Positions 47,049-64,000 of a DNA stretch of 64,000 nucleotides are shown piece after piece; position 1 is the first letter of the stretch, and each line of letters opens with the position of its first letter. The stretch covers positions 186,001 through 250,000 of the forward strand of contig NZ_JAJEQG010000001.1 in NCBI RefSeq assembly GCF_020687245.1, given 5' to 3'. The notes below the pieces were generated by a model. That model was not told the origin of the DNA and made no database searches. It saw nothing but the letters and a program-made list of their open reading frames with translations. This DNA is from Faecalibacterium longum CLA-AA-H243 (GTDB lineage Bacteria > Bacillota > Clostridia > Oscillospirales > Ruminococcaceae). The translations under genes were made by a program, and so were the position numbers.

Positions 47049-48614
47049 TCAGAAATTCCATTCGATCGTTATTTTTTGTTCTCCGGTAAGCGTATCTTTT
47101 GGGCTGACAATAACACGATGGACCAACAGTACAGCAAGTTCGCGGGTCAGGTACGAAACCTGTGCCAGTTCACGGACACGCTGCATCTGTGTCTGGACTC
47201 CACCGGTTTCTTCCTGCTGTTGTTCCAGTTCCGTTTCCAATGTATCGATCCGGGTCTCTGCCTTTTTCACTTCTTCCAGAAAGGTCTGGTTCATTTCAGA
47301 AAACTGAACGGCATCAATTAAACCTGACACCTTATCCAGATAAAGCTCCTGCATGGCCTTGCGCCGCCGGGCTGCTTCGCTCTTCAACCGTTTCAGCTCG
47401 TCACGCCTGGCCTGCTCTCGCTGCCGGATGGGGTCATCCTGTTCTGGAAGGGTAACTTTTTCAGGGTCAAAATAGTCTGCCGCATACGCCCGGATACGTT
47501 CCAGTACAGCATTCTCCAACGCGTCCATATCGGTACAGGTCCTGTTGCCGCACACTTCCGGTGCGCGCTGGTGCATCCGGCAGCGAACATAGCGTCTTTG
47601 TGTTCCATCCGCTCTCGGCTGACGGCCCGTTTGCTCCATGCAGCTGCCACAGCATCCACAAACCACTTTTTTTGCCAGCGGATGGATCGTTCCCTTCTCG
47701 CCGCTCCGGGTGCGCTCCTGCATCATCCTCTGGACCGTTTCAAACATTTCTCGCTCAATAATAGCTTCATGCGTATTTTCTACAACGATCCACTGCGATT
47801 TTGGAAGCCAAATCGTCTTTTCAGACTTGTAACTTATCTTTTTATGCTTTCCCTGCACCATATTTCCGATATAAAGCTGATCATGTAATATTTGATATAC
47901 GGTGGGACTGCTCCAAAGAGCCGCATTTGTATTCTTTAATGCACTGCGGTAATGGATGCCATGCAGCTGCTTATAGGCTGTTGGGCTTGGAATTTTTTCG
48001 TCATTCAGGATGCGTGCGATCTTGTGTGCGCCGATCCCGTTAAGAGCCATGGAAAAGATCCGCCTTACCACTTCGGCTGCTTCCGGGTCGATGATGAGTT
48101 TTCCTTTTGCATTTGGGTCTTTGCAGTATCCATACCGTGCAAAAGAGCCGATGAACAGCCCCTCTTTCCGCTTGTGGTCAAGCACCGAGCGGACATTGGT
48201 GGACAGATCTTCCAGATACCACTCGTTGATCAGGCCGTTGATCTGGCGGGATTTTTTGTTCGCGGTATCGTTGGTATCCACATGGTCTACCACCGCAATG
48301 AAGCGGATGCCCCACTCCATGAACTTTCCGTGCAGATATTTTTCCACGAGTTCCATGTCACGGGTGAAACGGGATTGCGTTTTGGCCAGTACCACATCAA
48401 ACTGATGTTCGCTTGCGGCTTGTATCATCGAATTGAATGCCGGACGGTTCCGGTCGATGCCGGAATAGTCCTCATCCGAATAGATCTGGTAAATATCAAA
48501 TCCTTTCTCCAGGGCGTACTGGAGCAGCATCGACTTTTGATTCTGAATGCTCTCCGATTCACCAATTTTATCTTCATCTTCTTTGCTCAGGCGGCAATAA
48601 ATGGCTGCTTTCAT
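47049..48614 (-). CDS. large serine recombinase
   Basis: This 521-residue site-specific recombinase has an N-terminal resolvase domain (catalytic Ser in YCRLSKED, then SRFTRDM). A recombinase domain (about 155-260, GYCKDPNAKGKLIIDPEAA) precedes a zinc ribbon (CGCCGSCMEQ ... RCRMHQRAPEVCGN). A long coiled coil (about 380-460) leads to the C-terminus. It resembles transposon and phage integrases such as TndX. The ATG at 48614 follows AAGAAGGGGG. Base composition is more AT-rich than its surroundings, consistent with transfer. Its 3' end lies 45 bases from the point where the neighbouring gene is truncated. Confidence 0.93.
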   Translation of the reverse strand: MKAAIYCRLSKEDEDKIGESESIQNQKSMLLQYALEKGFDIYQIYSDEDYSGIDRNRPAFNSMIQAASEHQFDVVLAKTQSRFTRDMELVEKYLHGKFMEWGIRFIAVVDHVDTNDTANKKSRQINGLINEWYLEDLSTNVRSVLDHKRKEGLFIGSFARYGYCKDPNAKGKLIIDPEAAEVVRRIFSMALNGIGAHKIARILNDEKIPSPTAYKQLHGIHYRSALKNTNAALWSSPTVYQILHDQLYIGNMVQGKHKKISYKSEKTIWLPKSQWIVVENTHEAIIEREMFETVQRMMQERTRSGEKGTIHPLAKKVVCGCCGSCMEQTGRQPRADGTQRRYVRCRMHQRAPEVCGNRTCTDMDALENAVLERIRAYAADYFDPEKVTLPEQDDPIRQREQARRDELKRLKSEAARRRKAMQELYLDKVSGLIDAVQFSEMNQTFLEEVKKAETRIDTLETELEQQQEETGGVQTQMQRVRELAQVSYLTRELAVLLVHRVIVSPKDTLTGEQKITIEWNF

Positions 48615-48692
48615 GATCTGCCCCCTTCTTTTTGTACACGAGCATCCATGCGCAGCATAACGCATCCCTCCTTCAAATTCAGGGATGCCACA

Positions 48693-49138: not shown

Positions 49139-50926
49139 ATGATGAAAAAGATCTCCCGCCGCTCGTTTTTGCAGGTCTGCGGTATTACTGCGGCAACGGC
49201 AGCACTGACCGCCTGCGGCGGCACTAAGACCGAAACAGCTAAAAAAGACGCTGCTCACGAAGCCATCACCTTTATGGCACCTTATAAGGAGATAGAAGCC
49301 TTTATTGAGCAGGTACACAGCGTTTACCCGGAAGTGAACATCGAGGTCGTGCCCTACAGCGGCGATAACACCACCACCTGTCTGCAGAATATGTTTGCGG
49401 CGGGCGACCTGCCGGACGTCTGCACCTTGACCCACTACGACCCCCGGATCGATCTGGTCTCCAACAAACTGCTGGACCTTTCCGGCTACGATTTTACGGA
49501 TAACTATGTGGAGTCCCGTCTGCAAGACGTGTTCGACAACGGTGCCATCTACCTGCTGCCCTCGACCTACAACTGCTACGGCATCACCTACAACAAGACC
49601 CTGCTGAAGAAATACGGCTGGGAGCTGCCCAATTCTTTCGCTGAGCTGGAAGAACTGGCTGCAAAGGCAAAGGAAGCCGGGGTCAATCTCTGTCTGCCGC
49701 AGATCCAGTATCCGGGCTACGGTTTCCAGTATCTGTGCAACATTGCAGACGCCGATTTCCTCGGCACACTGGACGGCAGGCTGTGGCAGCGGGATTATCT
49801 GTCCGGTAAGGCGAATGTCAGCAATACCCCCGGCATGATGCAGGCCATGGCCTATGTCCAGAAGTGGAAGGACATCGGGATGCTGAACGACACCGGCGAC
49901 GCTCTTGACGACAATGTGACCCGGCAGAGGATGGCTGAGGGGAACACCCTGTTTTTGATTGGAAACACCAACGGCATTGTGGAGGCAGACGGCAATGCCG
50001 ATAAATTCGGCCTGATGCCGTATCTTTCCGAGGACGGCACCCAGAATGTTTTTGTGCTGAATGTGAACCGCTTCTACGGTCTGAATAAAAAGCTGGAGCA
50101 GGATCCCCAGAAGCTGGAAGATGCGCTCAAGGTGATGCGTGTGCTTTCCACCGTTGCAGGCACCAGCGCTCTGCAGCCCGCAACGGTGCTGAAAAGCAGC
50201 CTGCTGCCCTTCAAGGACGCAAAAGCGGACGGCACCTACTATGCCGACATCGCCGATGCCCTGAACGCAGGCAACACCGCGCCCTTTATCTATTCCGGCT
50301 GGGAAAACACCATCGTGACCACCGGCCTTAAAATGCTGGACTTTATCAAGGGCGATGCTACCATGGAGGATGTGATCCGTCAGATGGACGAGGATCAGGA
50401 TAGCGTGGTGCACAACACCCCGGATGTTATCACTACCGTTACGGAGGAGCTTTCGCAGGAGGACTGCGCCATGCTGGTGGGTCGCTGCTTTGCACAGGCT
50501 ACCGGCAGCGACCTTGCGCTGGTCTCGCTGAGCACATGGATCCCCGGCAACCCCACCGATCAGAACCACCACGGCGTAGCGGCCAAACTGTACGCCAAGG
50601 ATATTACGGATTACGACCTTTCGGTCATTCTGCCCACCGGCTGGAACCGCACCATCCAGACCGTTTCCCTGACCGGGCAGCAGATCAGCGACCTGCTTGC
50701 TTCTGGTTACGATGCCTACGGCAACGGCAAGGGCTACCCCTATGTGCTGGTAAGCCCGGTGCAGCCGGAGGCGGGCAAGACCTATCAGGTTGCAATCTGC
50801 GGTGTGAGCGACCAGTTGGCTGCGGAGACCACGGTCACAGACAGCGGTGTGGTGGGCATGGATGCCGCAAAAGCCTTCTTTGGCGCATACACCACCATCA
50901 GCCGGGCAGATACCGCATGGAGCTAG
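49139..50926 (+). CDS. solute-binding lipoprotein with a 5'-nucleotidase-like C-terminal domain
   Basis: The signal peptide has a twin-arginine motif (SRRSFLQV) followed by the lipobox LTACGG, so it should be a surface lipoprotein of 595 residues. About residues 45-420 match family 1 extracellular sugar-binding proteins (ITFMAPYKEIEAFIEQV, AAGDLPDVCTL, VSNTPGMMQAMAYVQKW). The C-terminal part, about 440-590, resembles the substrate-specificity domain of 5'-nucleotidases (LPTGWNRTIQTVSLTGQQIS). No ABC permease or ATPase is nearby; a hybrid kinase starts 37 bases downstream. A sensing role for that kinase is likely. The start at 49139 has only a weak ribosome site. Confidence 0.88.
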   Translation: MMKKISRRSFLQVCGITAATAALTACGGTKTETAKKDAAHEAITFMAPYKEIEAFIEQVHSVYPEVNIEVVPYSGDNTTTCLQNMFAAGDLPDVCTLTHYDPRIDLVSNKLLDLSGYDFTDNYVESRLQDVFDNGAIYLLPSTYNCYGITYNKTLLKKYGWELPNSFAELEELAAKAKEAGVNLCLPQIQYPGYGFQYLCNIADADFLGTLDGRLWQRDYLSGKANVSNTPGMMQAMAYVQKWKDIGMLNDTGDALDDNVTRQRMAEGNTLFLIGNTNGIVEADGNADKFGLMPYLSEDGTQNVFVLNVNRFYGLNKKLEQDPQKLEDALKVMRVLSTVAGTSALQPATVLKSSLLPFKDAKADGTYYADIADALNAGNTAPFIYSGWENTIVTTGLKMLDFIKGDATMEDVIRQMDEDQDSVVHNTPDVITTVTEELSQEDCAMLVGRCFAQATGSDLALVSLSTWIPGNPTDQNHHGVAAKLYAKDITDYDLSVILPTGWNRTIQTVSLTGQQISDLLASGYDAYGNGKGYPYVLVSPVQPEAGKTYQVAICGVSDQLAAETTVTDSGVVGMDAAKAFFGAYTTISRADTAWS

Positions 50927-50963
50927 GGTACACCTTAAACAAAACGGACAGGAGATACTGGAT

Positions 50964-53255
50964 GTGAACAACAAAATCTATAAAAAGCTGTTTGGTGGCT
51001 TCGGCTTTGTCATCATCGTGTCGCTCCTGACCCTTTTTGTCATGAGCCAGACCTACATCCAGAACCTTGTCTACCATGAGCGGCTGAGCCAGATGGAAGA
51101 GGTCACCCACCAGATGTTCCGCAATCTGGAGGATGTCATCGACACCCACTGGGACGAGGTGGATGTGCAGTGCAATTATTTGTACTACACCCCGCTAAAG
51201 ACCGATACCGATCTCTACCGCTATCTGAAAAAGCTGCCCGAGCTTTCCAATTACCATGAAAAACAGGTCGAATTGATTGCCGTGGATACTGCCGGATATT
51301 ATTATACCGAGTATGGCCGCATGGGGCTGCTGCGGGGAATGAACTATCTGGAAAGCGCACCGGAGCGGGTCAGCTATATTTCCAACTCGCTGACCAAGGA
51401 CGACTCCTGGATGGTGTTTCTGGAACAGCTCTCCACCCCCATCACACTGCAAAGCGGAGAAAAAGAGATCACCCTGCGCTACTTTGGCATCTCCCAGAGC
51501 ATGACCCAGCTGAACGATTATTTCCGCTGTGACGCCTACGAAAACAGCAACAGTGTCTATGTGCTGGACAACAACGGCTTTAAGCTGTTCAACGCCAATG
51601 ACACCGAGCTGCTGAAGGGACACAACGTATACACCGTCCTCTCCCGGATGTCCTATCTGCACGGCTCTTCCTTTGCGGGGGCAAAGGAGCGGCTTACCCG
51701 CACAGGCTCCTGCTATTCCAACGCCGTGCTGGATGGGACTGAGTATTTCTACGCCCTGAAGCAGATGGAAAACGCCCAGTGGACACTGGCGTTCCTTGTT
51801 CCGGCAGAATATGTGGCCGTGAATACGCAGAAGCTGGTCAACATCGTCATGGTCATCATCATCGTCATTGCGATGATGTTCTCGGTCATAACAGTTTTCG
51901 TTGGCTGGTTTCTCCTGCGGCAAAAGCAGCAGCAGGAGCTGCGGACTGAAAAAGAAGCGAACCTCCGTCTGGAACAATACAACATCCATCTGACGCAGGT
52001 AAATGATGAGCTGCGGCAGGCGCAGGTCGTTGCAGCAGAGGCTTTGCAATCCGCAGAGCGCGCCAGCAAGGCCAAGACGGACTTCCTTTCCAACATGAGC
52101 CACGACATCCGTACCCCCATGAACGCCATCATCGGCATTACCACCCTGATGAAAAACGAGCTGCACCAGCCGGAAAAGCTGGCCGAACATCTGGGCAAGC
52201 TGGAAACTTCCGGTCAGCTGCTGCTGGGCATCATCAACAATATTCTGGATATGAGCCGCATCGAGAGCGGCAAGACCACCCTGAATGTGGAAAAAATGAA
52301 CCTGCCCCAGCAGGTCAGCCAGCTGGACAGCATCATCCGTCAGCAGGCAGGCCAGCGCCGCCAGACCTTTACGGTAAACACCCATCTGCAGCACGAAAAC
52401 GTACTGGCAGACCCCAACCGCCTGAATCAGGTGCTGATGAACATCCTCTCCAACGCGGTCAAATATACGCCCAAGGGCGGGCATATCCGGTTGGAGGTGG
52501 AAGAGCTGCCCCGGAACGAGCACTTCGCCCGGTACCGCTTTGTGGTGCAGGATGACGGCATCGGCATGAGCGAGGAGTTCCAAAAGACCCTTTTTGACCC
52601 CTTTACCCGTGAGGAAAAATCCGGCACCAATAAGGTGCAGGGCACCGGCCTTGGCATGGCCATCACCAAGAGCATCGTAGACCTGATGGGCGGCACCATC
52701 CACGTGGAGAGCACCCCCGGCAAGGGCACCCGCTTTGAGGTCGTGCTGGAATTTCCCATTGATGCCGAAGCAGATACGGTGCAAGAGGCACAGGTGCTCC
52801 CGGAGGAAGAAGAGACCGCTTCTCCTCTGTCCGGCATGAAGTTCCTCTGCGCCGAGGATAACGCCATCAACGCCGAAATTCTGGAAATGCTGCTGGAATC
52901 CAAGGGCGCACACTGCAAAATTTACCCCAACGGTCAGGAGATCGTGGATGCCTTTGCCAGCGTCAAGCCCGGCGAGTACGACATGATTTTGATGGACATT
53001 CAGATGCCGGTGATGGACGGCCTGGAGGCCACCCGCCGCATTCGCAATGGCGAAAATCCACTGGGCAGGATCATCCCCATCCTTGCCATGACTGCCAACG
53101 CCTTTTTGGAAGATATGCAGAAGAGCAAGGAAGCTGGGATGGATGTACATCTCTCCAAACCCGTGGACATTGCAGCGCTAGAACAGACCGTAAAACGCTT
53201 CCGCGTTACCCCCCCCCCATTAAAAAATAGCGGAAAAGCGCGTTTCCGCAGATGA
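50964..53255 (+). CDS. hybrid sensor histidine kinase with one receiver
   Basis: The 763 residues have two transmembrane helices (about 12-32 and 293-320) around a large cache-like extracytoplasmic domain. A coiled linker leads to the dimerisation box [16 protein letters not shown] (His near 379) and the ATPase ([25 protein letters not shown]). A receiver has its Asp in LMDIQMPVMDG near 677. The start is GTG 50964, 9 bases after GGAG. A run of ten Cs (53209-53218) lies at the 3' end and sets the last dozen residues. The stop overlaps the next start (ATGA). Confidence 0.93.
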   Translation: MNNKIYKKLFGGFGFVIIVSLLTLFVMSQTYIQNLVYHERLSQMEEVTHQMFRNLEDVIDTHWDEVDVQCNYLYYTPLKTDTDLYRYLKKLPELSNYHEKQVELIAVDTAGYYYTEYGRMGLLRGMNYLESAPERVSYISNSLTKDDSWMVFLEQLSTPITLQSGEKEITLRYFGISQSMTQLNDYFRCDAYENSNSVYVLDNNGFKLFNANDTELLKGHNVYTVLSRMSYLHGSSFAGAKERLTRTGSCYSNAVLDGTEYFYALKQMENAQWTLAFLVPAEYVAVNTQKLVNIVMVIIIVIAMMFSVITVFVGWFLLRQKQQQELRTEKEANLRLEQYNIHLTQVNDELRQAQVVAAEALQSAERASKAKTDFLSNMSHDIRTPMNAIIGITTLMKNELHQPEKLAEHLGKLETSGQLLLGIINNILDMSRIESGKTTLNVEKMNLPQQVSQLDSIIRQQAGQRRQTFTVNTHLQHENVLADPNRLNQVLMNILSNAVKYTPKGGHIRLEVEELPRNEHFARYRFVVQDDGIGMSEEFQKTLFDPFTREEKSGTNKVQGTGLGMAITKSIVDLMGGTIHVESTPGKGTRFEVVLEFPIDAEADTVQEAQVLPEEEETASPLSGMKFLCAEDNAINAEILEMLLESKGAHCKIYPNGQEIVDAFASVKPGEYDMILMDIQMPVMDGLEATRRIRNGENPLGRIIPILAMTANAFLEDMQKSKEAGMDVHLSKPVDIAALEQTVKRFRVTPPPLKNSGKARFRR

Positions 53256-55033
53256 AACACACAAATGATGTAAATAATGTAGAAGAAGGTCAGAACGTGA
53301 ATACACTTTCCGAGATTGAGAAATATTACAAAGCGCGTGAGCAGCAGCTGTTGAAAAAGCTTCATCGACAGGAAGCTGCTCTTGCCGCAGCGGAGCAAAC
53401 GCTGAAGCGATTGAACGAAAATCAGAAAGCACCGATGGACGAAACCACCGAGCAGCGTACTGCACAGGAGCAGGCATTCAAAGAAAAACTCTATCGAGAT
53501 CCGCTGACAGGAATTTACAACCGCCGCTATTACGAAGAAGTTGTCCGTAAATCCATCGGCCCCGCAGGGATCGCGCTGATAGATGTGGACGATTTCAAGA
53601 TCTGCAACGATACCTATGGGCATTACGCCGGAGATATGGCACTGAAAACGGTGGCAAACACCATCCAGTCCTGCATCCGGGCGTCGGACCTGCTCATCCG
53701 CTATGGCGGAGACGAATTTCTGCTGGTGTTATCCTGCATTCCGGGAGACTTTTTGCAGACCAAACTGGAACAGATCCGCACCGCCGCGCAGATGGCATCT
53801 GTACCCGGCTATTCGCATTTCCGTATCTCGCTGAGCATTGGCGGAACGATACAGTCCCTCGCCGACCCTATGGAAAACATCGTTCGCCGGGCGGATTGGC
53901 TGATGTATCAGGCAAAGTGCCGCAAGAATGCCGTCACGGTGGAACTCCCCGAAAACGCGCTGACCGCGCAGGAAGAACTGGTGGAGGAGAAGCCGCAGAT
54001 TCTTCTTGTGGATGACTCTGAAATGAACCGCATGATGCTGACAGAGATCCTGGGGGATAGTTACCACATTCTGGAAGCAGAAAACGGACGGGAATGCATG
54101 GAAAAATTGCAGGCAGAAGCCGGAAACATTGCACTGGTGCTGCTGGACATCAATATGCCCGTTATGGATGGCTTTGAAGTGCTGAAAGCCATGAATGCCA
54201 ACCACACCATCGAGGATATCCCGGTCATTATGATCTCCAGCGAGGACTCCGATGCGACGATCCGGCGTTCCTATGAGCTGGGCGCAAGTGATTATGTCAA
54301 TCGCCCCTTCGATGCTCGTATCGTGTACCGCCGTGTAACCAACACCATCAAGCTGTACGCCAAGCAGCGGCGGCTGGTGCAGATGGTCTCTGAGCAGATC
54401 CGCGCCCGTGAAAATAATACGGATATGCTGGTGGGTGTACTGAGTCATATCGTAGAATTCCGCAACGGCGAAAGCGGCGCCCATGTGCGGCACATCCGTA
54501 TCATCACCGAGCTGCTGCTCCACCGTCTGTTGGAGATCAGCAGCAAATACTCTATCACTGCGGAACAGCAGGATATGATTCCGCTGGCTTCTGCCCTGCA
54601 CGACATCGGAAAAATCGGCATTGACGAAAAGGTCCTTAATAAGCCCGGCAGGCTGACCCCGGAGGAATTCGAGGTCATGAAGACCCACAGTATGCTGGGA
54701 GCCAAGATGCTGCATGATCTGGATAATTTTGCAGAGCAGCCGCTGCTGCAAACGGCCTACGAGATCGCCCGCTGGCACCACGAACGCTGGGATGGGCGCG
54801 GCTACCCGGATGGGCTGAAGGGCGATGAGATCCCCATCAGCGCACAACTGGTTTCGCTGGCTGATGTGTACGATGCACTGACCAGCGAACGCTGCTACAA
54901 AAAAGCCTTCTCCCACGAAAAAGCCGTGCAGATGATCCTGAACAGCGAGTGCGGAGCGTTCAACCCGCTGCTGCTGCAGTGCCTGACGGATATTCAGGCT
55001 GACCTGAAAGAAGAATTACAGCAGCACAACTGA
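53252..55033 (+). CDS. GGDEF - receiver - HD-GYP cyclic-di-GMP signalling protein
   Basis: This 593-residue soluble protein opens with a coiled coil (about 20-80). A diguanylate cyclase domain follows with intact RYGGDEF near 151, and then a receiver with Asp in LLDINMPVMDG near 298. An HD-GYP phosphodiesterase domain ends it, with ALHDIGKIGI near 449 and GRGYPDGL near 516. It may both make and break cyclic-di-GMP under control of phosphorylation. It overlaps the upstream hybrid kinase by ATGA, which makes that kinase the obvious phosphodonor. No I-site was confirmed. Confidence 0.94.
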   Translation: MKHTNDVNNVEEGQNVNTLSEIEKYYKAREQQLLKKLHRQEAALAAAEQTLKRLNENQKAPMDETTEQRTAQEQAFKEKLYRDPLTGIYNRRYYEEVVRKSIGPAGIALIDVDDFKICNDTYGHYAGDMALKTVANTIQSCIRASDLLIRYGGDEFLLVLSCIPGDFLQTKLEQIRTAAQMASVPGYSHFRISLSIGGTIQSLADPMENIVRRADWLMYQAKCRKNAVTVELPENALTAQEELVEEKPQILLVDDSEMNRMMLTEILGDSYHILEAENGRECMEKLQAEAGNIALVLLDINMPVMDGFEVLKAMNANHTIEDIPVIMISSEDSDATIRRSYELGASDYVNRPFDARIVYRRVTNTIKLYAKQRRLVQMVSEQIRARENNTDMLVGVLSHIVEFRNGESGAHVRHIRIITELLLHRLLEISSKYSITAEQQDMIPLASALHDIGKIGIDEKVLNKPGRLTPEEFEVMKTHSMLGAKMLHDLDNFAEQPLLQTAYEIARWHHERWDGRGYPDGLKGDEIPISAQLVSLADVYDALTSERCYKKAFSHEKAVQMILNSECGAFNPLLLQCLTDIQADLKEELQQHN

Positions 55034-55071
55034 GCAATGGATGCAATAAAACAGGAGAACAAAACGCCCAA

Positions 55072-55899
55072 ATGAAACACAGAATCTCACGCCGTGCATT
55101 TCTGCGCGGCTGCACGCTGCTGGCGGCATCTGCTGCCGTCGGCAGTCTGACTTCCTGCGGCGGAACGAACGCGAAGGACAGCGGTCTTCCGCAGATCATT
55201 GTGGGAAGCGATACCTATCCACCCTATATTTATCTGAACAATGACGGCGTTCCCGCCGGGATCGACGTGGAGATCGCCACCGAAGCGTTCCGCCGCATGG
55301 GGTATGCTGCCCGGTTTGAAACGATCGACTGGGAGCAGAAAACAAATCTTGTGGAAAGCGGCGCCATCGACTGCATCTGGGGCTGCTTTTCCATGCAGGG
55401 ACGCGAAGAAATGTACCGCTGGGCGGGGCCTTACATGGTGAGCCGTCAGGTGGCTGCGGTGGATGCCGACAGCAGCATCCGATCCCTCAGCGACCTTGCC
55501 GACAAGACCGTCGCCGTGCAGAGCACCGGCAAGCCGGAGGAAATCTTTCTCAGCGGCTCCGACCCGCGCATCCCGCAGACGGTGGAGGTGCTCAGCATCG
55601 AAAACCGCAGCGTGCAGTACGCGCTGCTGTCCTGCGGCTATGTGGATGCCATCGCCGCCCACGAGACAGGCATTCTGCAATACATGAAGGACAATTCCGT
55701 GGAGTTCCGCATTTTGGAGGAACCGCTGCTGGTCACCGGGCTGGGCGCCGCCTTTGCCAAGAACGACACCCGCGGTCTGGACAGCCAGTTGACCGACACC
55801 CTTGCGCAGATGCGCACAGACGGCACACTGGAGCAGATCCTTGGCAAGTATCTTGAACATGCTTCGCAGTATCTGGAGGTGGACACCATTGGCACGTAA
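55072..55899 (+). CDS. family 3 solute-binding lipoprotein (amino-acid type)
   Basis: The 275 residues start with a twin-arginine-like signal (SRRAFLRG) and lipobox LTSCGG. The rest is a family 3 periplasmic binding fold: IIVGSDTYPPYIYLN, GIDVEIATEAFRRMG, SLSDLADKTVAVQ and DAIAAHE. These usually bind amino acids or related small acids. There is no transporter gene next to it. It overlaps the following hybrid kinase by 11 bases, suggesting that it presents a ligand to that kinase. Confidence 0.92.
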   Translation: MKHRISRRAFLRGCTLLAASAAVGSLTSCGGTNAKDSGLPQIIVGSDTYPPYIYLNNDGVPAGIDVEIATEAFRRMGYAARFETIDWEQKTNLVESGAIDCIWGCFSMQGREEMYRWAGPYMVSRQVAAVDADSSIRSLSDLADKTVAVQSTGKPEEIFLSGSDPRIPQTVEVLSIENRSVQYALLSCGYVDAIAAHETGILQYMKDNSVEFRILEEPLLVTGLGAAFAKNDTRGLDSQLTDTLAQMRTDGTLEQILGKYLEHASQYLEVDTIGT

Positions 55900-58468
55900 A
55901 AACAGAACCACCCCGGATACATGGAGATGGGGGATCTATCTGGTCATCGGCGTGCTTTTTATGGCCGTCGTCGTTTTTTTCTCAGGTTGGCGGGCGCTGC
56001 GCACAACGGAGGCTCGTTTCTGTCAGATTCTTGATTTTGTCAAATCGCAGTCCACCAGCTTTGAAAAGTACAACGATACGGTTGTGGCCAAAACGCTCCG
56101 CCGCACGGCGGTATCGGTGCATCAGCTGGCACAGGACCCTGCGCTCGACCTTTCCGACCCGCAGTGCCTGAACAGGCAGGCAGAGCTGCTCTGGCTCACA
56201 GGTATTTCAGTTCTGTCTCCGGACGGTACGCTCCTGTGCGAATCCACAACGAACGGCATCGGCTATGCCCGGTTTGGAGAGCAGATCAAGAATGATACGG
56301 TTCTGGACGTTTTCTCTTACCCGCAAAAGACCTACCTGAAGCGTGTCCTGCTGGAGGATGGGTCTGCCGTGGATGTTGCGGCACACCGGGCAGAAAGCAA
56401 AGAGGCTATCCTGCTTGCCTACCGCTATACCCCGGCAGAATTTATAGAGGGAACGGCCTTGTCCATCCAGAGCGTACTGGACGGCTACTCGGTTGAGACC
56501 AGCGGCACATTGTTCATCGTGCAGAACAATCAGGTCATCGCCTCTAACCGCCCGGAGCTCATCGGGCAGGATGCTGCGGACAGTCCGCTGGTGCGGGAGA
56601 TCCGCAAAGCCGGGGCTGCCAAAACGCTGACCCATACCCACGATTGGAACGGCTCCGGCTGCTATTTTGGAATGTACTGCCACGGAAGGTCTTTCGATCT
56701 CTACGCGTATACGGATGAAAAATCCGTCTTCCGTGAATCGTTTCCGCTGATTTTGATGGCGCTGGCCGGTTACATCCTGCTTGTAATGGTCCTTTGGGTG
56801 CTGCGCAGACGCTCCGTGCAGGAGATGGAGCAGCAGAAGAAAGAGCAGGAGAAGAAGTATCAGGCTCAGCTGGAGGAACAGAACCGCAAACTGGAGATCG
56901 CACTCCAGCACGAGGGTGCGGCAAACCGTGCCAAGCGGGAGTTCCTGTTCAATATGAGCCACGATATTCGCACCCCCATGAACGCCATCATCGGCTTCAC
57001 CTCGCTGGCTGCGACCCATATTGATAATAAGGAACAGGTGCTGGACTACCTGAAAAAGATCTCTACCTCCAGCCAGCATCTGCTTTCCCTCATCAATGAT
57101 GTGCTGGATATGAGCCGCATCGAGAGCGGAAAAGTAAAAATTGAAGAAAAAGCGGTGCATCTGCCGGACCTCGTCCACGATGTGCGCTCCATCATCCAAC
57201 CCGATGTTTCGGCAAAGCGGCTGTCGCTTTTCATCGATACCATGGACGTGGAGAACGAGGACATCATCACCGACCCGATGCGGCTGAACCAGATCTTGCT
57301 GAACATTTTGTCCAACGCCATCAAGTTCACTCCCACAGGCGGTACGATCAGCATCCGCATTGCCCAGAAGAACGGTGCGCCCAAGGGCCGTGGCTGCTAT
57401 GAGTTCCGCATCAAGGACAATGGCATTGGTATGAGCGAAGAGTTCCAGAAGCACATCTTTGAGGCGTTCAGCCGGGAGGAAAGCTCCACCGTCAGCGGCA
57501 TTCAGGGTACCGGCCTGGGCATGTCCATCACCAAGAACATTGTGGATATGATGGGCGGCACCATTGCGATTGAAAGTGAACCGGGCAAGGGCAGCGAATT
57601 CATCGTAGATCTCTGCTTCGCACTCAGCGGACAAAGGGTGGAGCCCAAGCAGCTCCCGCAGTTGGAAGGGCTGCGCGCATTGGTAGCAGACGACGATACC
57701 GACACCTGCCTGAGCGTCAGCACCATGCTGTCCAAGATCGGGATGCGGCCGGAGTGGACGATCTCCGGCCGGGAAGCGGTGATCCGCACCCGATACGCCA
57801 TGGAGCAGGGCGACGAATTCAGCGTCTACATCATCGACTGGCTCATCCCCGATATGAACGGCATCGAGGTCGTGCGGCAGATCCGCAAGGTGATCGGGAA
57901 AAGCTGCCCTATCATCATTCTGACGGCCTACGATTGGACGGATATTGAAGAGGAAGCCCGCGCTGCCGGAGTGACCGCCTTCTGCGAAAAGCCGCTGTTC
58001 CTTTCCGAACTGCGCAGAGTGCTGGCGGAACCGTACGGTGCAGAGCCTGCCTGTAAGCCAGCGCAGCCAGCTGCCGCCGAGCTCAGGGGAAAGAATCTTT
58101 TGCTGGTGGAGGACAATGCCTTGAACCGCGAGCTCGCACTGGAGATCCTGAAGGAAGCGGGCTTTGCGGTAGACACTGCTGAGGATGGCGAGATCGCTGT
58201 CCAGAAGATGAAGCAGGCGGCCCCCGGGCAGTACGATTTGATCTTAATGGACATCCAGATGCCCAAGATGGACGGTTACGAGGCAACGCGGCAGATCCGT
58301 GCCCTGCCGGATGCTGCAAAGGCAGACATTCCCATCTTTGCAATGACGGCAAATGCCTTTGAAGAAGACCGTCAGAATGCATTGAAGGCCGGTATGGACG
58401 GCCACATTGCAAAGCCGCTGGATATTCCGCATCTGCTGCAGGTCCTCGCAGATGTACTGAAATCATAA
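55889..58468 (+). CDS. hybrid sensor histidine kinase with two receivers
   Basis: The 859 residues have two transmembrane helices (about 15-35 and 287-310) around a cache-like sensor and a coiled linker. The kinase core has [16 protein letters not shown] (His near 358), [10 protein letters not shown] and GTGLGMSI. Two receivers follow: the first with IIDWLIPDMNG near 650 and the second with LMDIQMPKMDG near 787. The start is TTG 55889, about 10 bases after GGAGG inside the binding-protein gene. It is clearly paralogous to the kinase at 58584-61520 on the opposite strand. Confidence 0.93.
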   Translation: MARKNRTTPDTWRWGIYLVIGVLFMAVVVFFSGWRALRTTEARFCQILDFVKSQSTSFEKYNDTVVAKTLRRTAVSVHQLAQDPALDLSDPQCLNRQAELLWLTGISVLSPDGTLLCESTTNGIGYARFGEQIKNDTVLDVFSYPQKTYLKRVLLEDGSAVDVAAHRAESKEAILLAYRYTPAEFIEGTALSIQSVLDGYSVETSGTLFIVQNNQVIASNRPELIGQDAADSPLVREIRKAGAAKTLTHTHDWNGSGCYFGMYCHGRSFDLYAYTDEKSVFRESFPLILMALAGYILLVMVLWVLRRRSVQEMEQQKKEQEKKYQAQLEEQNRKLEIALQHEGAANRAKREFLFNMSHDIRTPMNAIIGFTSLAATHIDNKEQVLDYLKKISTSSQHLLSLINDVLDMSRIESGKVKIEEKAVHLPDLVHDVRSIIQPDVSAKRLSLFIDTMDVENEDIITDPMRLNQILLNILSNAIKFTPTGGTISIRIAQKNGAPKGRGCYEFRIKDNGIGMSEEFQKHIFEAFSREESSTVSGIQGTGLGMSITKNIVDMMGGTIAIESEPGKGSEFIVDLCFALSGQRVEPKQLPQLEGLRALVADDDTDTCLSVSTMLSKIGMRPEWTISGREAVIRTRYAMEQGDEFSVYIIDWLIPDMNGIEVVRQIRKVIGKSCPIIILTAYDWTDIEEEARAAGVTAFCEKPLFLSELRRVLAEPYGAEPACKPAQPAAAELRGKNLLLVEDNALNRELALEILKEAGFAVDTAEDGEIAVQKMKQAAPGQYDLILMDIQMPKMDGYEATRQIRALPDAAKADIPIFAMTANAFEEDRQNALKAGMDGHIAKPLDIPHLLQVLADVLKS

Positions 58469-58490
58469 CGGCTGCCAGCCGACAAAAGCA

Positions 58491-58557
58491 AAAGCACCCG
58501 CAGCAGGCTTCGCAGAGGCTCTTGACCTCTGGAAGCGAATGCTGCGGGTGCTTTATT
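58491..58557. terminator. bidirectional terminator between converging hybrid kinases
   Basis: AAAGCACCCGCAGCA (58491-58505) pairs with TGCTGCGGGTGCTTT (58540-58554), with an inner stem of GCTTC/GAAGC. Confidence 0.85.
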
Positions 58558-58583
58558 TATTTTTTGTCTGACAGGCGTTTGGC

Positions 58584-61520
58584 TTACAGGATCTTGCGCA
58601 GCTCCTGCACAAGGTCACCGATCACGATGGGCTTGGACAAAAAGCCGTTCATGCCGCTTTCCAATGCGTTGCGGCGATCCTCGTCGAAGGCGTTGGCGGT
58701 CATGGCAAGGATTGGGAGCTTTGCCCGGGCAGGGTCATCCAGTGCGCGGATCTTCCGGGTGGCGGTGTAGCCATCCATCACCGGCATCTGCACATCCATC
58801 AGCACCAGATCATAGCTGCCCGGCGCTGCGGTGCTCACCTTTTCCACCGCCACTTCACCGTTTTCCGCTGTATCGACCTGGAAGCCGTACTCGCGCAGGA
58901 TCTCCTGCGCGATCTCGCGGTTCAGCTCGTTGTCCTCTACCAGCAGGATGTGTCTGTCCTTAAAGTCGGCGTTCTTTTCCGGCAAAAGCTCCTGCGACGC
59001 ATCTGTCAGTTTCTGGCCGAGGGCGCTCATCAGAGTCTCGCGCAGGTCAGACAAGAACATGGGCTTGGAGCAGAAGGCGGTCACACCGGCGGCCTTTGCC
59101 TCTACCTCAATGTCAGACCAGTCATAGGCCGTCAGGATGATGATGGGGGTATCGTCGTTCAGGCTGCGTATCTGGCGGGTGACCTCGATGCCGTTCATAT
59201 CCGGCAGCCGCCAGTCGATGATATAGGCGTGGTAGACATCGCTCATCTCGATGGACTGCCGCGCGCGCAGCACCGCTTCCTTGCCGGAAAGGGTCCACTC
59301 CGCGCGCATTCCCACCTTGACCAGCATCTTTGTCACGCTGTCGCAGGTGTTGAAATCGTCGTCCACCACCAGAGCCTTCAGGCCTTCCAGCTCGGTGATC
59401 TTTTCCACCGGGCGGTGCTCTGTCTGCACCCGCAGCGGCACACGAATGATAAACTCGCTGCCTTTGCCCTGCGCTGTCTGCACCTCGATGCTGCCGCCCA
59501 TCATATCCACGATGTTTTTGGTAATAGCCATGCCAAGGCCGGTGCCTTGGATACGGCTGACCGTGGAGGTGCGCTCCCGCTCAAACGGCTCAAAGATTTT
59601 TTTGGCAAATTCCGGGCTCATGCCGATGCCGTTGTCCTTGATGCGGAACTCGTACTGCCCGCAGCCGCGCACCTGCCCGGCAAGCTGGCGCACCCGCACC
59701 GAGACCGTGCCGCCCGCCGGGGTAAACTTGATGGCGTTGGACAGCAGGTTCAGCAGGATCTGGTTCAGCCGGGTCTTATCGCAGTAGACATCCTCGTCGG
59801 TCACATCCATCGCGTCCATATAAAGCTCCAGCTGTTTTGCGTAAATCTGCCCACTGACAATGGTTTTCAAATCGTGCAGCACATCCGAAAGGTTGACTTC
59901 CACCTCTTCCAGATGGATCTTTCCACTTTCGATGCGGCTCATATCCAGCACATCGTTGATGAGCGAGAGCAGATGGTTGCTGGAAGCAAGGGTCTTGGCC
60001 AGATAATCCTTCACCCGCTCCTTGTCGTCGATATTGCTGATCGCCAGTGTGGTAAAGCCGATGATGGCGTTCATGGGGGTGCGGATGTCGTGGGACATAT
60101 TGGAAAGGAAAGTGCTCTTGGCGCGGTTGGCAGTCTCGGCGGCGGCAACGGCATCCGAAAGCGCCTGATTTACCTGTTTGTCGGCGGTGCGGTCGGACAT
60201 GACAAGGATGTATTTGGTCCTGCCCTCCACCTCGCTGCCTATGGCGATGTTATGGAACCAGCGGCGCTCTTTGGTTTCCAGATGCTCAAACTCGAAATCC
60301 CATTCCCGCTGCTGTCCGCTGAGAAGCCCATCCAGAAAGTTTTTGCCCTGCTCCGGGGCGCCCAGCTTGTCCAGAGCAAAGGCATTTTGCCGGACTTCTT
60401 TCCACGGGATGCCCAGCAGACGCTCAATGTTCGGGCTGACATAATCCACCTTGGAGGTCTCTGCGTCCAACATCAGGAAAACGTCGTCCACGTTCAGCGA
60501 GAGCTTCTGGAACAATTCATCCCGGTACAGGAGCTTGGTGTTCTTCTGGCGCAGTGCAGTATGGCCTCTGCGCACAACGAGCAGAATGGCCAGCGCGGCA
60601 AAGCCAAGGACAATGCCCGCCACGATCTGCACCGTATGGAACCACAGCTTATCCAGATTGGCATTGACGATGCTGACCGGGACAAGTCCCAGCATCGTCC
60701 AGCTCTGGACCGCCGTGCCCTCGTAGACCAGATAATAACTGGTATCGCCCAGCTTTAACTTCATGTTTCCGCTGTCGCCCTGTGCAAAGGCATTGGACAG
60801 ATCAAGGATCTGCGCCTCGGAAAGGTCGGAATGGTCGCGCAGCATCGCAACGAAGTTGTAGATCGTTTCCGTGCGGTTTACGGAATTGTCGATGACCACC
60901 CGCCCATCCGGGTAGATGACATAGTTGCTGGCATTGCCCTGAAAGGCAGAGTTGTCCAGTAATCTCAGCACCTCATCATTGTAATAGGTGATGGCAACGG
61001 CATCGTAGGCAAAGCCCCGGTAGCTGCCCTGCGTTTCGGGACAGATGAACGCCAGCATCTGGGGCTTGCCGGGCAGAGCCGTATTCATCACAATATCGTT
61101 ACCGTCGGCAAGCTCTTCGTCCAGATTTGTCTGCAGGCCAAGGTAGCCCGTTTTCCCGGTCACGGTCATGTAGTTGCCGTCATAGGTAAGAAAGTAGAAT
61201 TCGGCAAACCCAGCCTCCTGCTGTGCCGCCCTGATATACGCCTGTATTTCGGCCTCATCCGAGGTACTTTCCAGAAAGCCGTTGTACAGATGCAGATAGG
61301 TCAGGTTCTTGCGTACCATCTCTTTCAGCATATTATTGGATTTATGCAGCACCTCTTCCAGATGCGAGGTGCTTTCCTGATAGATGGTCTGGGACACAAA
61401 CGAGATGTACTGGACACTGAAACCGACTGCCAGAAAGATCAGAAGAAGGATGGCAGCAACAGGGAGCCATTTTTGCCGGGGATGGCAGTTTCGTTTGGAT
61501 TCGTGCTTTTCGTCTACCAT
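58584..61520 (-). CDS. hybrid sensor histidine kinase with PAS and two receivers
   Basis: The 978 residues comprise a transmembrane helix (about 20-42), a large double-cache-like sensor and a second helix near 300. A PAS domain ([21 protein letters not shown]) precedes the kinase core ([16 protein letters not shown], His near 476; GTGLGMAI). Receivers carry their Asp in [11 protein letters not shown] (near 768) and [11 protein letters not shown] (near 908). The ATG at 61520 is preferred over GTG 61529 because GAGGTG lies 8 bases upstream. The gene overlaps the end of the binding-protein gene that precedes it. Confidence 0.93.
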
Positions 61521-61525
61521 CCCGC

Positions 61526-63392
61526 TCACCTCAACGTAATGTAGTTTTCAGGCTCTGCAAGCGCTGCGCCGCCGCCGGAGACATAATCGCGCCATCTGTT
61601 TTTTACCCATGTATCTCCGTCCAAAGACGTGCCGCTCTCGCTCGCAAGCAGCGCTTCCATCTGTTTTTCCGCTGCCAGACAGGTCACGGTAACGGTGTCG
61701 TCGTCCTTCAGCGGCTGTCCATTCCGGGTGATGCCGGTCAGGGTATAGCTGCCGCTTGCCTCTTTGACCTCCACGGCAATGCCGCTGACCACCGGCAGAG
61801 AGCCGCGGTTGAAGGGTACAAACCCACCCTTGCAGCCCTCCACAAAGGCGCGGACGGTCTCCTTCAGCTCTGCGCCGGTCATGGTGCGCTGGCGGGACAT
61901 CAGACCGTTGGGCATGATCATGGAAGCGGCCATTTTCTTGTTATAATCTGCCTGCAGCACACTGCCGGTAAAGCTGTTTGCGGTGGCAAGCAGCACATCG
62001 GTGCCATAAACGCCCCGCAGCGTGTTCGCCATAACGGAGAAGGAGGCGCTGCCGCCGTTTGCGTGGAAGACATTGGAATAGCTCTTCCCGGAGGTCAGCA
62101 CGATCTCGTCATCGTCAGGCGTTTCTTCGGCAAGAAGCCTGGCATTGAACGCACGATAAGCCTGCCGTGCCGTGTACTCGCCCGCGATCATTTTGGAGAC
62201 AACGTCCTTGGAGACGGCAAAGAAATCGTTGGAGGCGATGCGGATATACATGTGGTTTTCTTCCACCACATCGCGCACGTCCTTCATGTACTCGGTCAGG
62301 CGCAGAGGGACATTCTGGCTGTAGCTCAGCACATCCTGCCCGTCGGCAACGATGCGGCTCTGCGCCTCCTCGGAGAGCATGACGTTCAGCACCTTTATGG
62401 CTTTTTCGCGGCGCGCGGTGTCCTGCTCGAGGTCACGGTTCAGAGCGATCTGGAAATACGGGGTGGTCATGATCCACTTTTCGCCGTTCTGGCTGAAGAA
62501 GGGCAGGAAGATCGTGTCGATGCCCTCATCCTGAAACATCTTGACACCGGCAGAGCTGCCAAAGTACATGGCAACTTCTCCGTTCCGGAACATCCCGGTC
62601 ACATCGTCGTAATTCAACGCAAGATCGTCTGCCGTGAGGTGGGTATCCTGAATGAACTGCGCCATCCGCTCAAACGCCCCCGGCCACACGGTGTCGTCCA
62701 GACCCACCCGTGCGGTGCTGGCAGGGTCGCTGTAAGCAGTGCGCCACTTGCGCCCATCAGTCGTGGTAAGCTCGGCAGCGGAAAGCCCCTGCAGCGTTTC
62801 CATGCAGGTATAGTCGTAGGTATAATCGGCGGTAAAGCCGCGGATGCCCACTTTTTCAAACGCCTGACAGGCCGAAACGAAGCTCTCGTAATCGGGTGGG
62901 CAGAGGAATATCGTACTGCTCAAAAAGGCTGCGGTTGACCACAAAGCCGTGGGCATCGGCGCAGACCGGCAGCCAGTTCACGCTGCCGTCCTCGTTTTTG
63001 AAGCTGTTGAGGTAGGTGTTGTACACAGCGCCCGCCTCGTTGGTCAAGGCAAGGTTCATCAGGCTGTCCTTCAAGGGGGCCGCATCGTGCAGCGAGAAGC
63101 GGCAGCTGGTGATGATATCCGGCAGACCGCCGTTCTCCTGCAAAAACTTGTAAAAATCCAAATCGTTGTTGCCCACGATGAATTCAATATTTACATCCGG
63201 CAGCTGGGACTGGATATAGGGCGCATAGGTTTCGTACAGGCTGGTACTCCACAGATACACCTGAATGGTCTGGGCATCCTCCTGCTTTTCCACATTTTCG
63301 GCGGTTTTTGTTCCGCAGCCGGTCAGCAGGGAGACCGCCATCACCAGTGCCACAAGCACGGAAAACAGGCGGTGCAATGTTCTTTTGTTCAT
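61526..63392 (-). pseudogene. solute-binding lipoprotein with 5'-nucleotidase-like C-terminus, frameshifted
   Basis: The reading frame starts at ATG 63392 (GAGGAG 10 bases upstream) with a lipoprotein signal (VSLLTGCG). It runs as a family 1 binding protein to FEQYDIPLPT, then shifts frame near 62894-62900. From DYESFVSACQAF onward it continues in another frame to the TGA at 61526. The joined length is 1867 bases, one more than a multiple of three, so a single extra base in GGGTGGG (plus strand) explains it. The C-terminal domain resembles that of the gene at 49139. It could be a true mutation, a slippage event or a sequencing error. Confidence 0.82.
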
Positions 63393-63487
63393 TAAATTGT
63401 TCTCCTCACAACTCTTGGGCAGCTGCCGTTCTGCACTCCCGAATACCACAAAAGGGCATCGATACAGCATGACAGAACTATAGGATT

Positions 63488-63516
63488 ATTTTACCACCGC
63501 CATGATGGATTTTCAA
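63488..63516 (-). promoter_or_regulatory. sigma-A promoter of the second sensory operon
   Basis: On the minus strand TTGAAA (plus 63511-63516) and TAAAAT (plus 63488-63493) are 17 bases apart. The spacing and -35 match the promoter at 48955-48983. Confidence 0.75.
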
Positions 63517-63648
63517 TAAAATTTCATATATTGATTCATAAAAGCAGCGCGTCCGATTTCTTTGCGCCAGTCGATGCAGCTTTTTGTATCAACGCACAGG
63601 GTGAGGCGGTCTGCCAGTATTCTTATGTGCTGCAGCCTTCTGTCCGCA

Positions 63649-64000
63649 TCAGAGATATTTCTGGATGGTCGGCACAAGGACATTCATATTGATCGGTTTT
63701 GCAACATGGTCGTTCATCCCGGCATCCAATGCCGCCTGCTTATCTTCGGAGAAGGCATTTGCAGTCATAGCGATGATGGGGATGCCTGCCTTTTGGGGGT
63801 CATCCATCCTCCGTATCTTTTTTGCCGCATCGTAGCCGTTCATCACCGGCATCTGGATGTCCATAAGGATCAGCCGGTACGTTCCGTTCGCAGCTTTTTC
63901 CAGCATATCCACACATTCCACGCCGTCTTTCGCGCGGTCTACCGTGCAGCCCTCTTCCTGCAACAGCTCGGTGGCGATCTCCGCATTCAGGTCGTTGTCC
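63649..64000 (-). CDS. C-terminal receiver of another hybrid kinase (partial)
   Basis: The frame enters from the right edge (DNDLNAEIATELLQEEG) and ends at TGA 63649-63651. The visible 116 residues are a receiver with Asp in LMDIQMPVMNG and Lys in VAKPIN. The sequence MTANAFSEDKQAALDAG is shared with the receivers of the other hybrid kinases in this window. Most of the gene lies outside. It is a fourth member of the kinase cluster. Confidence 0.85.
   Translation of the reverse strand, partial: DNDLNAEIATELLQEEGCTVDRAKDGVECVDMLEKAANGTYRLILMDIQMPVMNGYDAAKKIRRMDDPQKAGIPIIAMTANAFSEDKQAALDAGMNDHVAKPINMNVLVPTIQKYL

What the first reader, a model, noticed from the sequence alone, without database searches (positions are those of the whole stretch)
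49139..64000. Signalling island: solute-binding lipoproteins without transporters, each tied to a hybrid kinase
Three solute-binding lipoprotein genes (49139, 55072, 61526-63392) have no ABC permease or ATPase beside them. Each is followed by, or overlaps, a hybrid histidine kinase with a cache-like outer domain, and the start of a fourth kinase is at the right edge. Overlapping starts and stops (11 bases at 55889, ATGA at 53252) show tight coupling. The binding proteins probably work as ligand receptors for the kinases, like periplasmic binding partners known in other systems. A repeated unit of this kind in one locus seems unusual.
Basis: partly seen in the sequence, partly recalled or inferred. 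Interest (0 to 1): 0.72.

Follow-up and report, generated by a model that had tools for sequence, protein, structure and literature searches.

The report
Kinase-coupled binding lipoproteins with swappable sensors
In Faecalibacterium, several surface nutrient-binding proteins probably serve not for import but as the ligand-catching halves of neighbouring sensor kinases, and in some strains the binding protein and its sensor have been exchanged as one block while the kinase part stayed the same.

Summary
The window is Faecalibacterium-like. Three solute-binding lipoproteins (SBPs) lie beside hybrid histidine kinases and no ABC permease was found in the 64 kb. The fourth kinase at the right edge is seen by its end, not its start; it has two SBP domains fused in front. 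SBP3 is frame-broken here; nine other genus copies are intact.

Pairing is kept in 31 genus genomes: SBP2-family 17 of 17 matches, SBP3/SBP3-like 14 of 14, SBP1 8 of 8. (1) SBP1 and SBP3 carry an extra C-terminal domain related to the 5'-nucleotidase C-terminal domain (clear in relatives and in a predicted structure, weak or absent in Pfam for the window proteins), without a nucleotidase catalytic domain. In 27 named loci, 16 of 20 SBPs with it sit by a hybrid kinase, 0 of 20 by a permease; 7 of 7 without it sit by sugar permeases. (2) At the kinase 1 locus a ~2.8 kb block, from just after the lipoprotein signal peptide to just before the phospho-acceptor helix, was replaced as a unit while both flanks stayed 75-97% identical.

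Best reading: ligand-receptor subunits of hybrid kinases, a known kind in a new variant. Binding and ligands are untested.

The parts
49139..50926 (+). SBP1: Tat-like lipoprotein, SBP_bac_1 domain plus C-terminal 5'-nucleotidase C-type domain (about 50372-50923)
50372..50923 (+). C-terminal domain of SBP1, 5'-nucleotidase C-terminal fold (not the catalytic domain)
   Evidence: AF2 model pLDDT 90; best Foldseek PDB hits are 5'-nucleotidases, E 3e-9, TM 0.6; Pfam PF02872 E 0.0013, below cut-off
50964..53255 (+). Kinase 1: dCache ectodomain, HisKA, HATPase, REC (GTG start)
51045..51836 (+). Kinase 1 extracytoplasmic dCache sensor domain
   Evidence: AF2 model pLDDT 87; Foldseek hits are Cache sensor domains, TM 0.4-0.6
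53252..55033 (+). GGDEF-REC-HD-GYP protein, probable c-di-GMP output
55072..55899 (+). SBP2: Tat-like lipoprotein, SBP_bac_3
55889..58468 (+). Kinase 2: unassigned ectodomain, HisKA, HATPase, REC-REC (TTG start, overlaps SBP2 by 11 bases)
58584..61529 (-). Kinase 3: ectodomain homologous to kinase 1's, HisKA, HATPase, REC-REC
61526..63392 (-). SBP3: lipoprotein, SBP_bac_1/8 plus C-terminal 5'-nucleotidase C-type domain; reading frame broken in this assembly (ORFs 61526-62956 and 62856-63470)
   Evidence: C-domain by profile comparison only, no Pfam match of its own
63649..64000 (-). 3' end of kinase 4; full gene 951 aa runs out of the window (L006:4649-7504): tandem SBP_bac_3 domains fused to HisKA-HATPase-REC

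Best explanation
Each SBP lipoprotein is the dedicated ligand-catching subunit of the hybrid kinase encoded next to it. The SBP is anchored on the outer face of the membrane, closes on its ligand and acts on the kinase's extracytoplasmic sensor (dCache in kinases 1 and 3); this alters autophosphorylation, and phosphate passes to the REC domains, then probably through one of the genome's two stand-alone HPt proteins to response regulators such as the GGDEF-REC-HD-GYP protein in the cluster, so that the output includes c-di-GMP turnover. In SBP1 and SBP3 the extra 5'-nucleotidase C-type domain is most likely part of the receptor side: a docking surface for the dCache domain or a second small-molecule site. 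SBP plus sensor form one exchangeable input cassette on a constant kinase. Shown from sequence: gene pairing, domain make-up, no permease found, C-domain kinship, block exchange, one natural SBP-kinase fusion. Inferred: physical contact, ligand control, the phosphorelay route and the C-domain's role.
For: Pairing kept 17 of 17 (SBP2 family at E 1e-25, 13 of 31 genus genomes), 14 of 14 (SBP3 and SBP3-like at E 1e-15, 11 of 31), 8 of 8 full-length SBP1 (for matches; 32, 40, 42 for neighbours). In the regions read, permeases appear only beside the two short SBP1 homologues L110 and L113 and in the Opp control L002. Named loci: 16 of 20 SBPs with the C-domain have an adjacent hybrid kinase (two after a second such SBP), 0 of 20 an adjacent permease (in L128 permeases lie 5.8 kb away); 7 of 7 without it have sugar-type permeases and no kinase match. 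C-domain alone over 393 class genomes: of the 29 best loci other than the window's, 10 are SBP fusions, 9 of them beside a kinase (the tenth on a 5.4 kb contig); 19 are not SBP fusions and show no kinase in the fetched stretch, short for most; 4 of those 19 were tested with Pfam and are true 5'-nucleotidases. Block exchange: kinase core 75-97% and leader (first 100 bases of the gene) 75-84% identical to the window in DNA, 33-58% between; homology resumes at window 52062 in 4 of 4 loci (protein view of 3 of the 4). SBP3 and full-length kinase 3 occur in the same 10 genomes. Kinase 4 fuses SBPs to a kinase. Two HPt proteins in the genome, one beside a paralogue of the GGDEF-REC-HD-GYP gene.
Against: No binding or ligand data. 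4 of 20 C-domain SBPs in named loci have no kinase beside them: L137 and L139 no partner seen, L140 a chemoreceptor upstream instead, L144 cut at the contig start. Adjacent SBP and kinase did not bind in Pseudomonas (PMC11113362). The C-domain/kinase link is largely one lineage (2 label changes on a tree of 42 rows), several named loci are genomes also counted in the genus, and three come from one Blautia strain, so the counts are not independent. SBP3's C-domain has no Pfam match of its own. Co-divergence of SBP2 with its sensor (r 0.98) is barely above that with the kinase core (0.94) and does not discriminate.
Confidence: 0.8

Rival explanations
1. The SBPs are orphan uptake proteins that feed permeases encoded elsewhere (with a shared ATPase), and the kinases sense ligands directly through their own ectodomains; adjacency only reflects co-regulation.
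For: Shared ABC ATPases are common in Firmicutes (recalled) and G000 has 32 permease matches; several of the nearest folds to kinase 1's sensor are receptors with bound small ligands (titles); adjacency without binding is documented (PMC11113362).
Against: SBP with sensor, not SBP with permease, is what is exchanged and lost together; SBP1 homologues that do sit by permeases lack the C-domain.
Confidence: 0.12
2. SBP1 and SBP3 are degenerate surface 5'-nucleotidases: the C-domain marks an enzyme acting on nucleotides and the kinases respond to the product.
For: The C-domain is kin to the 5'-nucleotidase C-terminal domain.
Against: No metallophosphatase match; the N-terminal part of SBP1 and of intact SBP3 matches SBP_bac_1/8. 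Non-SBP proteins found with the same profile have Metallophos in 4 of 4 tested and no kinase in the fetched stretch.
Confidence: 0.03
3. The apparent cassette exchange is two old paralogous kinase loci whose cores and leaders were homogenised by gene conversion, rather than movement of the input cassette.
For: Four loci share one joint, so they may descend from a single event; two genomes carry both versions (G209: L058 and L102; G222: L109 and L045), which would allow conversion.
Against: Both ends of a continuous block are conserved: the first part of the gene in four of four loci and about 200 bases upstream in two of four. Either way SBP and sensor stayed together as the variable unit.
Confidence: 0.25

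Closest known systems
CuaD-CuaSR (Ruminiclostridium cellulolyticum), three-component system; PMC10384115, passages read
   Same: Clostridial SBP lipoprotein, separate from the transporter's own SBP, encoded next to a kinase; it binds the sensor ectodomain in a bacterial two-hybrid test.
   Different: CuaD is a 410-aa SBP; CuaS is a classical kinase with HAMP and a separate YesN/AraC-type regulator. Here kinases are hybrids and SBP1/3 carry a 5'-nucleotidase C-type domain.
XylFII-LytS (xylose sensing; known here only as cited; kinase type recalled)
   Same: SBP docks on the extracellular part of a kinase; a solved complex with two SBPs and two sensors is described in PMC10384115.
   Different: LytS-type kinase and xylose-type SBP; not hybrid, no added domain (recalled).
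LuxP-LuxQ and TorT-TorS (recalled; LuxQ and TorS models are also among the best NCBIfam kinase-core matches)
   Same: Binding protein plus hybrid kinase with phosphorelay (recalled).
   Different: Scores are far below the equivalog cut-offs and the best stretches cover the kinase core only.
BvgS/EvgS Venus-flytrap kinases
   Same: Kinase 4 has tandem SBP_bac_3 domains in front of a hybrid kinase.
   Different: No PAS domain and no HPt domain found in kinase 4.
AgtS/AgtB and AruS/PA4985 (Pseudomonas aeruginosa; PMC11113362, passages read)
   Same: SBP and kinase genes close together.
   Different: No binding could be shown there; a warning against inferring function from adjacency.

Membership tests
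SBP-coupled sensor kinase (three-component) systems | SBP gene adjacent to a kinase and kept together in relatives | tested here: met
   17 of 17, 14 of 14, 8 of 8
SBP-coupled sensor kinase (three-component) systems | no cognate permease beside the SBP | tested here: met
SBP-coupled sensor kinase (three-component) systems | kinase with a folded extracytoplasmic sensor domain | tested here: met
   kinase 1 dCache by structure, kinase 3 by profile; kinase 2 inconclusive
SBP-coupled sensor kinase (three-component) systems | SBP binds the sensor domain | not testable with these tools
   needs biochemistry
SBP-coupled sensor kinase (three-component) systems | ligand changes kinase output through the SBP | not testable with these tools
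   needs genetics
5'-nucleotidase family (SBP1) | C-terminal 5_nucleotid_C domain | tested here: met
   structure and relatives (7 of 12 above the Pfam cut-off, 3 below, 2 no match); SBP1 itself below cut-off
5'-nucleotidase family (SBP3) | C-terminal 5_nucleotid_C domain | tested here: inconclusive
   no Pfam match of its own; profile match of SBP3-type to SBP1-type C-domains 96%; relatives L183 and L055 above cut-off
5'-nucleotidase family (SBP1, SBP3) | N-terminal metallophosphatase catalytic domain | tested here: not met
   N-terminal part matches SBP_bac_1/8
BvgS/EvgS family (kinase 4) | tandem SBP_bac_3 domains N-terminal to a hybrid kinase | tested here: met
BvgS/EvgS family (kinase 4) | PAS domain and C-terminal HPt | tested here: not met
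   no PAS or Hpt match
LuxQ / TorS equivalogs | score above NCBIfam equivalog cut-off | tested here: not met
   best of four kinases: LuxQ 322 of 1200 bits, TorS 351 of 676.5 bits

The most novel reading that the evidence does not exclude
A class of receptor lipoproteins, SBP fused to a 5'-nucleotidase C-terminal domain, has become a dedicated partner of dCache hybrid kinases across Clostridia, the borrowed domain serving as kinase-docking or second ligand-sensing module; and Faecalibacterium changes what a kinase senses by exchanging the whole input cassette (mature SBP plus membrane sensor) between a constant signal peptide and a constant kinase core.
Probability: 0.45. Interest if true: 0.78.

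Novelty: new variant of a known kind. Interest (0 to 1): 0.62.

Why it matters
Hybrid kinases whose signals are unknown are common in gut Clostridia (recalled). If SBPs with this C-domain are kinase receptors, the domain becomes a simple genome marker that separates sensing SBPs from importing SBPs, which automatic annotation tends to name alike. The natural cassette exchange marks a joint, just before the phospho-acceptor helix, at which input and output have been recombined in nature, so signal specificity becomes directly testable with chimeras in laboratory strains.

Tried and rejected
Co-divergence of SBP2, sensor and core by pairwise identity: r 0.98 (SBP2-sensor), 0.94 (SBP2-core), 0.94 (sensor-core) over 45 pairs of 10 genomes, dominated by species relatedness, so not used as evidence (G222 and G212, whose kinase 2 frames are split, were left out). 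Homology of kinase 2's sensor to kinase 1's: not found (hhalign probability 0.3%); one of 14 members gives a weak Cache_WalK match. Idea that the serine recombinase next to SBP1 drives the exchange: among the 37 loci searched a 78% relative lies beside SBP1 only in G205 (L100 and L126 are the same locus); L048 and L051/L128 have 24% relatives and the rest (the window's own copy in L060 aside) no match, so not supported. Idea that the C-domain/kinase association arose many times: the tree of 42 SBP N-domains needs only 2 changes, and long branches make it unsure. Pfam for the C-domain: besides seven whole proteins above cut-off, three were below (L138, L186, L131) and two had no match (L043 = SBP3 of G223, and L111); 10 of 27 members of alignment A3 had no match at E 0.01. 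Nucleotide-binding residues of the C-domain were not mapped. My kinase profile was built from HisKA hybrid kinases, so LytS-type kinases near permease-linked or partnerless SBPs could have been missed; in L150 the SBP itself was seen only. Literature: nine searches were answered; in the listings I saw no paper on SBP-5'-nucleotidase-C fusions with kinases or on exchange of an SBP-sensor cassette. Listings only, apart from passages of PMC10384115, PMC11113362 and PMC11237719; subscription journals are mostly missing.

Full report
What is there. The window is bases 186001-250000 of contig 11 of a 2.96 Mb genome; its nearest named relatives in the SBP1 search are Faecalibacterium (90-94% identity). 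Reading left to right: SBP1 (49139-50926), kinase 1 (50964-53255), a GGDEF-REC-HD-GYP protein (53252-55033), SBP2 (55072-55899) and kinase 2 (55889-58468) on the plus strand; kinase 3 (58584-61529), SBP3 (61526-63392, frame broken) and kinase 4 (from 63649 out of the window) on the minus strand. All four kinases are hybrids. Kinase 4 has tandem SBP_bac_3 domains fused in front of HisKA-HATPase-REC. SBP1 and SBP2 have twin-arginine-like lipoprotein leaders (NCBIfam TAT model just above cut-off; the Pfam one is below it for SBP1), and TatC is found in 30 of 31 genus genomes.

Permeases. A tblastn search with ORFs from 10 permease regions of the same genome finds none in the window or in the kinase-linked genus regions L041-L060 and L100-L109, while it finds the Opp permeases 15.3 kb to the right of kinase 4. 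That operon has three SBP_bac_5 genes of its own. In G171 the longer named stretch L128 shows sugar permeases 5.8 kb from SBP1.

Conservation of pairing. In 31 genus genomes, SBP2-family proteins (E 1e-25 or better) occur 17 times in 13 genomes; I read the neighbourhood of all 17 and each is followed by a kinase (two of these kinases, in L045 and L047, are split into two frames). SBP3 (10) and SBP3-like (4) proteins in 11 genomes are all followed by a kinase (in G222 both of its kinases here are split). SBP1 is full-length in 8 genomes, 8 of 8 followed by kinase 1; a ninth genome (G221) holds relics of both. SBP3 and the full-length kinase 3 occur in the same ten genomes (SBP3 is broken in G000 and kinase 3 has a stop in G222). 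In G224 both are reduced to fragments, and in G209 the SBP3 ortholog and the kinase 3 sensor are gone while the kinase 3 core remains.

An extra domain that goes with kinases. The kinase-linked SBP1/SBP3 proteins have open frames of about 600-700 residues, whereas the permease-linked homologues measured have 440-486. The extra part is kin to the 5'-nucleotidase C-terminal domain. The AlphaFold model of SBP1's domain (pLDDT 90) has 5'-nucleotidases as its best PDB matches (E 3e-9, TM about 0.6), and a profile of the domain finds 5'-nucleotidase chains by sequence (3ivd, E 1e-9). Of twelve related SBPs scanned whole, seven are above the Pfam cut-off for PF02872, three below and two without a match. 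SBP1 itself is below cut-off. SBP3 has no Pfam match; for it the case rests on a profile-profile match of SBP3-type to SBP1-type domains (96% probability, E 6e-9) and on relatives such as L183 and the SBP3-like L055, which are above cut-off. The N-terminal part is an SBP, not a phosphatase.

Does the domain predict a kinase? Of 27 named loci found with an SBP1 alignment, 20 have the domain: 16 are beside a hybrid kinase and none beside a permease. The four others are L137 and L139 (no partner seen), L140 (chemoreceptor upstream) and L144 (contig begins at the SBP). The seven without the domain all have sugar-type permeases and no kinase match; three of these stretches are only about 6 kb. A search with the domain alone in 393 class genomes matched 86 genomes; of the 29 best loci besides the window's, 10 are SBP fusions (9 beside a kinase, one on a 5.4 kb contig) and 19 are not, with no kinase in the stretches fetched, which are short for most. 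Most of the weaker matches were not looked at. The tree of SBP domains needs two label changes, so this is mainly one old lineage whose partnership has been kept, not many independent gains; several named loci are the same genomes as in the genus counts.

Sensors. The kinase 1 ectodomain is predicted as a double Cache domain (pLDDT 87); its best PDB matches are ligand-binding domains of chemoreceptors and kinases, tandem CACHE of PscC among the first four. Kinase 3's ectodomain is related to it (99% probability over 248 columns). Kinase 2's is not, and its fold is open. So the SBPs with the extra domain go with one related set of sensors.

Cassette exchange. At the kinase 1 locus four genomes (G198, G210, G209, G222) have an SBP3-like protein and a kinase-3-like sensor on a kinase core that is 84-90% identical to kinase 1. 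In three of these (G222 not included) 40-residue windows along the kinase are 7-32% identical up to the window starting at residue 321 and 57-97% from 361 on; the phospho-acceptor histidine is residue 380. In DNA, against the window, the first 100 bases of the gene are 75-84% identical in four of four loci, about 200 bases upstream are homologous in two of four, the 2.8 kb after that are at background (33-58%), and the core is 75-97% identical. Homology resumes at window 52062 in four of four; because an 80-base patch there is conserved among other kinases too, the true joint may lie inside it. The exchanged block is thus the mature SBP, the gene junction and the sensor. The common joint suggests one event inherited by four genomes; gene conversion between two old paralogues is the rival reading. 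A second case is G209, where the kinase 4 sensor (95%) sits on the kinase 3 core (93%) with the joint at the same motif; that genome is a draft, so an assembly error is not excluded.

Output. The genome has two HPt matches; one is directly downstream of a paralogue (49%) of the GGDEF-REC-HD-GYP gene. This fits hybrid kinase to HPt to a c-di-GMP enzyme, but the route is inferred.

Ligands. SBP1 is nearest to sugar-binding proteins and SBP2 to polar amino acid binders. In SBP2 the arginine of the binding motif is kept in 17 of 17 family members, but the position of the ammonium-binding aspartate is histidine in 17 of 17 (the roles of these residues are recalled), so a plain alpha-amino acid is doubtful.

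Comparison with what is known. SBP-kinase partnerships exist: CuaD binds the CuaS ectodomain in a two-hybrid test, and its complex was modelled after XylFII-LytS (PMC10384115, passages); LuxPQ and TorTS are recalled. Neighbourhood alone can mislead (PMC11113362, passages). The island is a new variant of this kind. What I did not see in the listings of nine literature searches is the 5'-nucleotidase-C fusion or exchange of SBP plus sensor as one block.

Noticed in passing
window 61526-63392: SBP3 is frame-broken in this assembly; nine other SBP3 copies read in the genus are single ORFs. Real mutation or sequencing error not decided.
   Followed up: partly
window 47049-48665: Large serine recombinase (Resolvase, Recombinase, Zn ribbon) directly upstream of the island; a 78% relative lies at the same place only in G205 among the loci searched.
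   Followed up: partly
L056:7490-10786: G209 has a chimeric kinase: kinase 4 tandem-SBP sensor on the kinase 3 core, with the SBP3 ortholog not found in that genome.
   Followed up: partly
L140:5814-11555: A methyl-accepting chemotaxis protein lies upstream of two tandem SBP-5'-nucleotidase-C proteins, hinting that these SBPs may also serve chemoreceptors.
   Followed up: no
L195:58-1731 (G000 contig 2): Stand-alone HPt gene directly after a GGDEF-REC-HD-GYP paralogue, a likely phosphorelay partner of orphan hybrid kinases.
   Followed up: partly
L002:10678-20000 and L003:1-1705: Opp transporter with three SBP_bac_5 genes, all with Tat-type leaders above the Pfam cut-off.
   Followed up: no
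L045 and L109 (G222): Kinases 2 and 3, the SBP3-like gene and its kinase are split into partial reading frames, and the GGDEF gene beside kinase 1 is a 45-residue remnant, although the genome is one contig; decay or sequencing error.
   Followed up: no
L137 and L139: A MAG labelled Muribaculum (Bacteroidota) carries an SBP very close to one in a Lachnoclostridium MAG, suggesting a misbinned contig.
   Followed up: no
L130:5078-12210: Brotaphodocola catenula has SBP1 (66%) and its kinase followed by a second hybrid kinase whose sensor is 28% identical to kinase 2's, so the cluster order may extend beyond the genus.
   Followed up: partly
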